Below, in pieces: positions 36,589 through 39,699 of a DNA stretch of 64,000 bases. The notes under the pieces are model-generated. The model searched no databases. It was given only the letters and a program-made list of their open reading frames with translations, and was not told the origin of the DNA. This stretch comes from Neonectria sp. B-13. Lineage: Eukaryota; Ascomycota; Sordariomycetes; Hypocreales; Nectriaceae. Position numbers and translations under genes: made by a program. Every line of letters starts with the position of its first letter. Within the stretch, counting starts at the first letter, position 1. The stretch lies in NCBI GenBank assembly GCA_002682825.1, contig NOKP01000001.1:4777296-4841295 (forward strand). Reading direction: 5' to 3'.

Positions 36589-39500
36589 ATGGCGATATCT
36601 GCTCTTCCACCGTCTACAGCCCGCCTCCTAGGCTCCTCTATCGTCATCACCGACCCAGTCTCCCTCGTCAAGGAACTAATCGACAACGGCATCGATGCTG
36701 GGGCAACTTCAATTGAGGTCAGCATCTCTCCGAATACTGTCGACAAAATCCAGGTCCGAGACAACGGAAGAGGCATCCAGGTCGACGACTTCGACTTGCT
36801 TGGTCGCCGGGCACACACGAGCAAACTTCGAAACTTCGAAGAGTTGAAGACGAAAGGCGGCCAGACTCTAGGCTTCCGCGGGGAGGCACTTGCTAGTGCT
36901 AATTCCATGGCCATTGTTAAAGTCACAACCAAAACCGCCCGAGATCCAGTGGCGTCGTTGCTCTTGTTAAGGTTCGGTGATGGTGGCGTTGAGAAGAAGC
37001 ACCCGGTGGCTGCGCCCATTGGAACGACGGTTCAAGCGTCGAAGCTTTTTGACAATGTTCCTGTCCGAAAGCAGATGGCACTAAAGGTGAGCCGCAAAAC
37101 GTTGTTGAACGTCGAACGGCTGTTAGAGACATATGCGTTGGTTCTTCCGCGAGTCAGGCTCTCGCTCAAAGTACCTGGCGATCCTCAGCAAACATGGTCT
37201 TACTCTCCATCTTCTTCACCAAACACTCGCGAAGCTGTGACACAAATATTTGGCCGTTCTCTCAGTGCTCAATGTGTTGAAGTTACCGCATCTTTGAGCA
37301 CTTCTAGAGGGGCAACATGGGGAACATTGACCGCCTTTCTCCCAAGACCCAACGGCCAGTTGGGGGCAATCAAAGACAAGAGACAATTCATCTCTGTCGA
37401 CTCCCGTCCAATTCTGTCTTCACGGGGAACTGGGAAAAAGATTGTGACCATGTTCAAGAGAGAGATTACCGTTGCATTGGGTTCTGGCGATCTGTCAAGA
37501 TCATTATCTAATCCTTTCATGCGACTGGACATCAACTGTGAACTCGGATCTTACGACCCCAACGTGTCTCCATTGAAGGACGAAGTAATGTTCAAGGATG
37601 AGCAAGGACTGTTAGACTGCTTCCAGGCTCTGTGTGATCGAGTCTATAAGTCAGGTGGCTCTTCTCTCAGCCCAAGGCGAAGTCGATCTGGTTCAGAGCC
37701 CCATGGCAGCAACTCAAACACTGGTAGCCCGTCCTCGGGTAGCCAGCTACGTGTGCCGGATAGGAGTTCGCAACTCGGCTCTGGCTCCAAAGTGACTCCA
37801 ATCGATGTGGACACCCTCGAAGACATTGATGATTTCCCTATTAACGACTTGGAACTCTTTGAGCTTGAGGCCTTCGATGATGTCGAGCTTGAAAACGTCA
37901 TTGGTACGAGCGGCAATACTTCCCAGGGTGTTTTGGAATTTAGAAGTCAACCCGCACCTTCATGCACGCAAGCCAACACAGAGGCATCAGACGCAGCCGG
38001 CAGTCTAGAAACAGTTCCGGCAATGATGCGGACGGTTACCACGGTCAACCTTGCTCGCAAAAAAAGCAACAACAGCGACGAAGGTAGCATGCTTGGATTG
38101 GTCCCTGTTCAGGTTGCACCACGTCGGGAAACTTCCCCTACACCCAATCAGACCCGATCTCGCCCCGACTACAACGACCCAGCCCCATTTCATCGTCTGG
38201 AGGACATTGGCCGATACTTCCAGCCGAAGAGGGATGAACCAATAGAGATTGCATCAGATGAAACTGCCACGTTAGGGAATCTGCACAGCCAGGAGGAGTC
38301 TAATATATGCGAGACTATGAGGCAACACGAGCTTGGACGCCAACCGTTGATGAAACTGACGGCTTCAATGTTGAACACCCTTCGAGGTGAGGAGGAAGGA
38401 GAACTAGCACAGCAGGGCACGATCGACTTCTCCAGCCCAGAGCCAGATATTCTTCTACCCCATAATGCGCCACGGGGGGATCTTATTGCTCCATTGACAA
38501 CAAGAGGACCTAGCGTCGCTGCCGGAGAGCTGGGGTTGGCACCAATTGACCGTCACAGAACGGCGCTGCTTTCCTCTAGGACGCCGCCTGGGTCAGTTGT
38601 TCGAGCACAACGAAGAGTTCACGCAGTCTCTGATATGTCTCCGGTCCTTGGTGGATTCACCGCGTTGCAGACACCACCGTCGTCTGATACCTTGCCACCT
38701 GAGCGAGTCTCTCGACCTTCGACACTAACCCGCAGGGGCGCCGGTTACACAGGAAACCAGATCGCACCCCGACGAGTGGAAAGACCGCCTAGAAACGCAA
38801 TTGAAGATGATGACCTTAGACAAACCAAACTTCCGTTCGGTGATGGCTCACCTGGACAATCGAACGGATGCTGTACGCAGGATCCACCAAGCGGAAGCTT
38901 AACACTTGGTGAAAGAAACCCAATGGTGTCTAGACTCGATGGTCTGAACCAGCATTTACAGGGCACAGCGAAGAGAAACAAGGGGCTTGGGCACCAGCAA
39001 GGCTAGGGTCCTTCGAGTCGAAGCAGCCCATCTCAAAACTCAGACCAAGTTGATGATTTCTTCCAAAGAGCTTCCCAGCACCCCGATATGTTACAACCTA
39101 ATGCTGGAGTCACGAGAGACCAAGGTGGGCAATGGTCACACATGTTTCAGGCATTTCTGATGAAGACACCCCCGCCGCCGGAAGAAAGTTCCCACCGAAT
39201 CACTCGGGATGAAACAGGAAAGCTTGGAAACAACTTGGATCGATCGCGAAGGGGGAACACCCCATTCCTCGGAGCTCGTCCCAACAAGCGGCGCCGAAGC
39301 CAGTCAAACAGTGAGGTGTCTACTAGAGAGGTTCAAGACCCTCGACGCTATTTGATGACTGGACGAAGCTTAAGGTCGCGAAGTGGGCGGCCAAGGAGAC
39401 TGAGTACAAAGATGCTACCCTTGGAGAAAACCCCAATTCATGAGGAAACACACCGGCTTTCATTGAGAGTTGGAGTTGGACTTGGTGGCTTGAGAGAATC

Positions 39501-39699
39501 AATCTGGGAATCCATGGCACTGGAAGAAGGTACCGAGACGAGGGACGATGATTCGCCGCTGCAGTTTAGAGGCATGGAAGAGGTCGCATTTGTTGAAAGC
39601 CGATTGAGAGAGGCGGTGAGGTCGTGGTTGGATGGGGAGGATGATATGGAGGTAGAATATACACTGCAATCTGGAGCGAAGGGCAAGTGGAAGGTATGA
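36589..39699 (+). CDS. mlh2: MutL homologue (Mlh2 / human PMS1 type) with one in-frame TAG
   Basis: One continuous frame from the ATG at 36589 to the TGA at 39697-39699, broken only by a TAG at 39004-39006. Conventional translation gives 805 aa. The full frame is 1036 codons plus the stop. The GHKL ATPase domain is complete: KELIDNGIDAGATSIEV, DNGRGI, RRAHTSKL, GFRGEALASANS and KLFDNVPVRKQ. The start ALPPSTARLLGSSIVI resembles human PMS1/yeast Mlh2 rather than Mlh1, Pms1 or Mlh3. The middle (about 360-900) is disordered. The segment after the TAG ends in an ordered block (PLEKTPIHEETHRLSLRV ... EEVAFVESRLREAVRSWLDG) that looks like the MutL dimerisation end. Without it, pairing with Mlh1 would be lost. 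No DQHAxxE endonuclease motif is seen, as expected for Mlh2. Options for the TAG: nonsense allele, assembly error, or A-to-I edited codon. Confidence 0.85.
38999..39013 (+). other. Hairpin with 7-nt loop around the internal TAG
   Basis: AAGG (38999-39002) pairs with CCTT (39010-39013) and closes a 7-nt loop, CTAGGGT. The adenosine of the TAG (39005) is the third loop base and follows U. This is the geometry of a tRNA anticodon arm with A at position 34. The stem is only 4 bp and does not extend. Confidence 0.6.

What the first reader, a model, noticed from the sequence alone, without database searches (positions are those of the whole stretch)
38999..39699. In-frame TAG in a MutL (Mlh2-type) gene sits in an anticodon-loop-like hairpin: candidate A-to-I edited stop
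Seen: the gene is one frame from 36589 to 39699, interrupted once by TAG at 39004-39006. The 230 codons after it contain no other stop. By chance that would happen with probability near (61/64)^230, about 2e-5. They end in an ordered, charged C-terminal block. The TAG adenosine is base 3 of a 7-nt loop (CTAGGGT), preceded by U and closed by a 4-bp AAGG/CCTT stem. That is the shape of a tRNA anticodon loop with A34. Established: Sordariomycetes edit A-to-I in mRNAs during sexual development, prefer UA-G contexts in hairpin loops, restore some genes by UAG-to-UGG, and use the Tad2-Tad3 tRNA deaminase machinery. Inference: full-length Mlh2, with its C-terminal dimerisation part, would be made only in fruiting bodies, where a meiotic MutL protein is needed.
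Basis: partly seen in the sequence, partly recalled or inferred. Interest (0 to 1): 0.88.

Follow-up and report, generated by a model that had tools for sequence, protein, structure and literature searches.

The report
Conserved in-frame stop, probably RNA-edited
A fungal DNA-repair-type gene carries a stop codon in its middle where many related fungi also stop, with the part behind it kept in good order, so the cell probably rewrites the stop in its messenger RNA, most likely during sexual reproduction, to make the long protein.

Summary
In detail: one frame, 36589-39699, broken once by TAG at 39004-39006, with 230 open codons behind it. The fungus sits next to Neonectria. The stop is not a private defect: 36 of 120 listed relatives end at the same place by pattern, all within one clade, and Fusarium models that run through are interleaved with models that stop at near-zero distance. 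In 7 relatives compared, the part behind the stop is about as conserved as the tail before it; no credible intron covers the TAG; and the same genome has in-frame TAGs in a PUK1-like kinase and probably in a RID-like methylase (edited-stop genes in F. graminearum), plus a DUF726 gene with the residues published as critical in the editing cofactor Ame1. I favour A-to-I correction of the UAG (0.77). No RNA reads and no relatives' DNA were examined, so editing is inferred. It is a new member of a known kind; the F. graminearum orthologue may already be in a supplementary table that I could not open.

The parts
36589..39003 (+). Coding frame before the stop, 805 codons: MutL-type ATPase, DNA_mis_repair domain, long linker
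   Evidence: PDB matches to Mlh1, PMS2 and MutL
36664..36942 (+). HATPase_c_3 domain (residues 26-118)
   Evidence: Pfam E 1.5e-12
37240..37632 (+). DNA_mis_repair domain (residues 218-348)
   Evidence: Pfam E 1.9e-6
39004..39006 (+). In-frame TAG, candidate edited stop (A at 39005)
   Evidence: relatives end at the homologous place
38999..39013 (+). 4-bp stem AAGG/CCTT around 7-nt loop CTAGGGT; pattern present, fold not favoured
39007..39699 (+). Open frame behind the stop, 230 codons and TGA, with a conserved C-terminal block
39286..39297 (+). Basic cluster KRRR (nuclear-localisation-like core) behind the stop
   Evidence: pattern scan

Best explanation
The gene encodes an Mlh2-type MutL protein whose full length needs conversion of the UAG at 39004-39006 by the Tad2-Tad3-Ame1 A-to-I mRNA editing machinery, most likely during fruiting-body development. 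Without editing the mRNA gives an 805-residue ATPase-plus-linker protein; with editing it gives a 1036-residue protein that also carries the conserved C-terminal block. Shown here: the stop, its clade-wide position at protein level, the conserved downstream part, the lack of intron signals, likely orthologues of known edited-stop genes with in-frame TAGs and an Ame1-type gene in the same genome. Inferred: the editing event, its stage, and that the C-terminal block gives nuclear import or partner binding.
For: (1) 36 of 120 listed relatives end at this place: N. ditissima, three Logan ORFs, 26 Fusarium-type models ending like ...EDQEG, and 6 placed by length and ending only, Cosmosporella and Stylonectria among them. 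(2) All 36 lie in one clade of the ATPase-linker tree (support 0.94, rooted on Colletotrichum); in its Fusarium part 26 stop and 24 are longer than 880 residues, and near-identical neighbours differ (F. graminearum stops, F. austroamericanum runs through), which points to annotation. Those run-through models that I looked at cross the place with residues left out and with differing junctions. This is the syndrome described for the edited gene CHE1 (PMC11169179 passages) and for PUK1-like genes (PMC4817773 section 12). (3) Of 14 clade members from sources that I presume call genes without introns, 11 end at the place. (4) Identity to the window behind the stop v in the tail before it: P0004 0.50 v 0.50, P0005 0.46 v 0.49, P0011 0.43 v 0.34, P0013 0.38 v 0.28, P0018 0.36 v 0.26, P0062 0.35 v 0.34, P0079 0.29 v 0.34 (7 relatives chosen). 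(5) The best frame-keeping intron over the TAG is matched or beaten at 44% of 837 codons of the same frame; 0 of 9 nearby acceptors has a CTRAY branch match. (6) Same genome: PUK1-like kinase with tandem in-frame TAGTAG at CD**SIGIILYE; a cytosine methylase frame open but for one TAG; a DUF726 gene with MV 89 residues before the presumed catalytic D, the Ame1 spacing (PMC11087585 passages). (7) U at -1, G at +1 and +3, the published preference (PMC11156358 text).
Against: The hairpin is not the favoured fold, whereas in the controls the minimum-energy fold puts the A in a hairpin loop at 5 of 5 flank lengths for the PUK1-like TAG and 3 of 5 for the methylase TAG. Two clade members from presumed unspliced sources, P0011 and P0064, run through, so the stop is not universal. 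Relatives were seen as proteins only, so their stop codon may not be TAG. Outside the clade 10 of 21 presumed unspliced relatives end early at other places, perhaps in introns, which weakens ORF ends as proof of an exonic stop. The methylase part before its TAG matches no Pfam family, so that control is not proven exonic. No RNA was examined. The main text of the F. graminearum study holds no mention of a MutL or mismatch gene.
Confidence: 0.77

Rival explanations
1. The TAG lies in a short intron, spliced always or alternatively, as for FgBUD14 where editing and alternative splicing are both reported.
For: Some annotated relatives use an intron here; CTAG could serve as an acceptor; FgBUD14 precedent (PMC11156358 text).
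Against: One weak GTRNGY donor only (38873), 0 of 9 nearby acceptors with a branch match, best intron score average for the frame; junctions differ between the two Dactylonectria models; the whole stretch is already open and coding-like.
Confidence: 0.08
2. The stop is the true end and only the 805-residue protein is made; the downstream frame is a relic or is translated on its own from the ATG at 39088.
For: Many gene models end here; a 203-residue ORF starts at 39088.
Against: The downstream part is conserved and is fused to the ATPase in full-length relatives, some of them from presumed unspliced sources such as P0085, P0090 and P0095; only one separate downstream protein was found, from another lineage.
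Confidence: 0.06
3. Programmed translational readthrough of UAG.
For: Would also keep the downstream frame.
Against: UAG followed by GGU is not a leaky context known to me (recalled, not tested); the genome has likely edited-stop genes and an Ame1-type gene.
Confidence: 0.05
4. Recent pseudogene or sequencing error.
For: A single stop is all that the window itself shows.
Against: Relatives end at the same place; no further stop in the frame; downstream part conserved.
Confidence: 0.02

Closest known systems
PUK1-like edited-stop genes of Fusarium graminearum (premature stop codon correction, PSC)
   Same: In-frame UAG, protein continued behind it, automated gene models that truncate or invent introns (PMC4817773 section 12; PMC11156358)
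   Different: Editing not shown here; a MutL gene, not named in the main texts seen; hairpin weak
CHE1, a PSC gene conserved among Fusarium species
   Same: Stop conserved among species with the same kinds of annotation error (PMC11169179 passages)
   Different: CHE1 is edited in hyphae and reported conserved in closely related Fusarium; here the stop position is seen in several genera
Mlh2-type MutL proteins
   Same: MutL ATPase and transducer domain, no endonuclease motif found, not MLH1 or PMS1
   Different: C-terminal block matches no known MutL C-terminal domain in the searches made

Membership tests
PSC-edited gene (A-to-I, Sordariomycetes) | A-to-G change at the UAG in RNA, absent from DNA | not testable with these tools
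   no reads available
PSC-edited gene (A-to-I, Sordariomycetes) | In-frame UAG with U at -1 and purines at +1 and +3 | tested here: met
   preference
PSC-edited gene (A-to-I, Sordariomycetes) | A in a predicted hairpin loop (a statistical preference) | tested here: inconclusive
   letter pattern present, fold not favoured; two control TAGs do better
PSC-edited gene (A-to-I, Sordariomycetes) | Downstream frame open, coding-like and conserved | tested here: met
PSC-edited gene (A-to-I, Sordariomycetes) | TAG is exonic, no intron removes it | tested here: met
   by sequence signals only, with recalled splice weights
PSC-edited gene (A-to-I, Sordariomycetes) | Stop conserved in relatives | tested here: met
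   36 of 120 listed relatives, one clade; protein level only, codon unseen
PSC-edited gene (A-to-I, Sordariomycetes) | Genome encodes Ame1 with the critical MV residues | tested here: met
   by spacing to a presumed catalytic D (published residues)
PSC-edited gene (A-to-I, Sordariomycetes) | Genome encodes Tad2 and Tad3 | tested here: inconclusive
   9 deaminase-domain matches (exons and duplicate copies among them), none assigned
Mlh2-type MutL | MutL ATPase and DNA_mis_repair domains | tested here: met
Mlh2-type MutL | Distinct from MLH1, PMS1 and MLH3, no endonuclease motif | tested here: met
   by elimination; that the C105 gene is MLH3 is a guess, its motif was not found in the pieces scanned
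Mlh2-type MutL | C-terminal Mlh1-binding (dimerisation) domain | tested here: inconclusive

The most novel reading that the evidence does not exclude
A stop codon has been held across several genera of the Nectriaceae in the linker of a MutL protein as a developmental switch: growing hyphae make a short ATPase form without the C-terminal basic cluster, and only editing fruiting bodies make the long form, tying a mismatch-repair or recombination factor to the sexual stage by mRNA editing.
Probability: 0.4. Interest if true: 0.75.

Novelty: new member of a known kind. Interest (0 to 1): 0.55.

Why it matters
Known edited stops can be shared within Fusarium (34 of 47 orthologous PUK1-like genes also edited in F. 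verticillioides; PMC4817773 passage), but few of the stop-edited F. graminearum genes are edited in Sordaria (9 of 240; PMC5381528 passage). A stop position kept across several genera, in a protein of the mismatch-repair family, would be a good test of whether edited stops are kept because the short form is useful. It is checkable in existing F. graminearum hyphal and perithecial RNA-seq, since a F. graminearum orthologue (P0087) ends at the same place.

Tried and rejected
Relatives' DNA: the genome contigs and viral-contig scans found no relative, so hairpin conservation and the identity of relatives' stop codon were not tested. Separate downstream proteins: none with the window piece, one from another lineage with an alignment. 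The C-terminal block as a known MutL dimerisation domain: no match; the weak CENP-T_C hit in 3 of 11 members, best E 0.056, is not significant. A SPO22 orthologue as a further control was found but I could not read its exons with confidence. Rfam and tRNA scans of the window: nothing. Literature (9 searches): the four-term search with mismatch repair, A-to-I, perithecia and premature stop codon gave 0 papers; mismatch repair with A-to-I and Fusarium graminearum gave 2, neither about an edited MutL. Supplementary files could not be opened, so absence from print is not claimed. One lead: FGRRES_01614, 'similar to DNA mismatch repair protein MLH3', has a co-expressed antisense lncRNA in sexual development (PMC6094484 section 11); whether it is this orthologue is unresolved.

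Row handling: the 120 relatives are the best listed of 1854. Simple patterns at the C-terminus give 36 that end at the place, 50 with the C-terminal block and 34 other (ended elsewhere, differently ended, or missed by the pattern; some of these are long). Of the 36, six (P0012, P0017, P0031, P0048, P0050, P0073) are placed by length and ending only, with weak tail similarity. The linker is poorly conserved, so in outgroups the homologous residue is not defined. 'Unspliced' for lgn, jgi and ena sources is my presumption. Splice and branch weights were typed from recall; the training ORFs are mechanical. The family name Nectriaceae rests on source names and general knowledge. On re-checking I lowered the main confidence from a drafted 0.80 to 0.77 because the two control TAGs fold better than this one, and re-marked the dimerisation test as inconclusive.

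Full report
What is there. The window lies in a 60.9 Mb assembly of 123 contigs; by its nearest relatives (N. ditissima, N. punicea, N. magnoliae) it is a fungus next to Neonectria. The gene at 36589-39699 is one frame with a single TAG at 39004-39006. Before the TAG are a MutL-type ATPase (HATPase_c_3, E 1.5e-12) and a DNA_mis_repair domain (E 1.9e-6), then a long linker; behind it no Pfam family is found. The NCBIfam mutl model matches above its cut-off. The genome has an MLH1 with Mlh1_C (C39), a PMS1 with MutL_C and a DQHA motif (C1, 5.40 Mb) and a further MutL with a weak MutL_C match (C105); the window gene shows none of these C-terminal features and is Mlh2-type by elimination.

Is it more than chance. 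The downstream 230 codons are open where the other two forward frames have 11 stops each; Markov sequence of like composition stays open in 2 of 20,000 trials, and codon statistics favour the frame. The letter pattern of the hairpin is rare (5 of 1034 TAGs, this one included), but the fold is not favoured, and with 30-nt flanks the A sits in a bulge. In the controls the minimum-energy fold has the A in a hairpin loop at 5 of 5 flank lengths (PUK1-like) and 3 of 5 (methylase).

Relatives. A search with the stop read as X returned 1854 proteins at E 1e-20 or better, of which the best 120 were listed. Their ends are telling: the window's frame ends ...NKGLGHQQG, N. ditissima ...HEGLEHKRG, three Logan ORFs ...NNGLEHQKD or close, and 26 Fusarium-type models ...EDQEG or close. 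By pattern 36 of 120 end at this place, 50 carry the C-terminal block and 34 are other. On a tree of the first 620-640 residues all 36 lie in one clade (support 0.94); in its Fusarium part 26 stop, 24 are longer than 880 residues and 3 are other, alternating at near-zero distances. The run-through models of Fusarium and Dactylonectria that I looked at leave residues out at the place, and the two Dactylonectria models have different junctions. Of 35 listed relatives from sources that I presume call genes without introns, 14 are in the clade: 11 end at the place, 2 run through (P0011, P0064) and 1 ends elsewhere (P0007). Of the 21 outside, none ends at the place by the pattern, 11 are longer than 880 residues and 10 end early elsewhere (tallied).

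Selection on the downstream part. Identity to the window behind the stop and in the tail before it is 0.50 and 0.50 (P0004), 0.46 and 0.49 (P0005), 0.43 and 0.34 (P0011), 0.38 and 0.28 (P0013), 0.36 and 0.26 (P0018), 0.35 and 0.34 (Tolypocladium P0062), 0.29 and 0.34 (Trichoderma P0079): equal or higher behind the stop in 5 of the 7 compared. Conserved features of the block include QxxLM, DPR, LPLE and a VEYxLxSxAKGK end. A basic K[KR]x[KR] cluster lies behind the stop in the window (KRRR), in 6 of 7 clade full-length models and in 2 of 4 outgroup models examined; it is absent from 13 of 13 stopping relatives examined (of 36), though the window itself has one KRNK eleven residues before the stop. 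That suggests, as an inference, that the short form lacks a nuclear-import signal.

Intron rival. The best frame-keeping GT-AG intron that would remove the TAG (38873-39124, score 4.21) is matched or beaten at 44% of 837 codons of the same frame. The region has one GTRNGY donor, and 0 of 9 acceptors between 39006 and 39326 has a CTRAY branch site. The weights were typed from recall.

Does this fungus edit stops. Its PUK1-like kinase reads ...GRCD**SIGIILYECLYG with tandem TAGTAG inside a Pkinase match of equal length in protein and profile, the arrangement reported as edited UAGUAG in F. graminearum PUK1 (PMC4817773 abstract and passages). A cytosine methylase gene on C13, called RID-like because the other methylase of the genome has a much longer frame (C39), is open over 1035-3101 of L025 save one TAG at 1734; the domain lies behind the TAG and the part before it matches no Pfam family. 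The F. graminearum rid orthologue is a named edited-stop gene (section 12). One DUF726 gene, on C2, has MV 89 residues before the presumed catalytic D, matching MV500-501 and D589 of Ame1, while the other two genes have SL and AH there (passages of PMC11087585). Tad2 and Tad3 were not told apart among 9 deaminase-domain matches.

Conclusion. The stop is a feature shared across a clade in what looks like a working gene, in a fungus that has likely targets and the cofactor of A-to-I stop editing. Editing is the best explanation (0.77) but is inferred. It belongs to a known kind; what stands out is the breadth of conservation and the MutL identity. Papers: PMC11156358, parts 1 and 2 of 3 of the text; PMC4817773, section 12 and passages; PMC6094484, section 11 and passages; PMC11169179, PMC9600606, PMC11087585, PMC5381528 and PMC7660929, passages only. 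Other papers were seen in search listings only.

Noticed in passing
   Followed up: no
P0098 and P0121 (database proteins): In another lineage an N-terminal ORF of 761 residues and a separate C-terminal ORF of 178 residues have a longest contig of the same length (147974), so this gene may be broken in its linker there too.
   Followed up: partly
P0097, P0099, P0101, P0102, P0103, P0106 (database proteins): A group of relatives all end in PRT, TKT or MRT before the C-terminal block while their relative P0095 runs on; intron or further stop is unresolved.
   Followed up: partly
L024 (C1:4482500-4485500), minus strand: PUK1-like kinase with tandem in-frame TAGTAG in its kinase domain.
   Followed up: yes
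L025 (C13:203000-207500), position 1734: RID-like cytosine methylase frame broken by a single TAG.
   Followed up: partly
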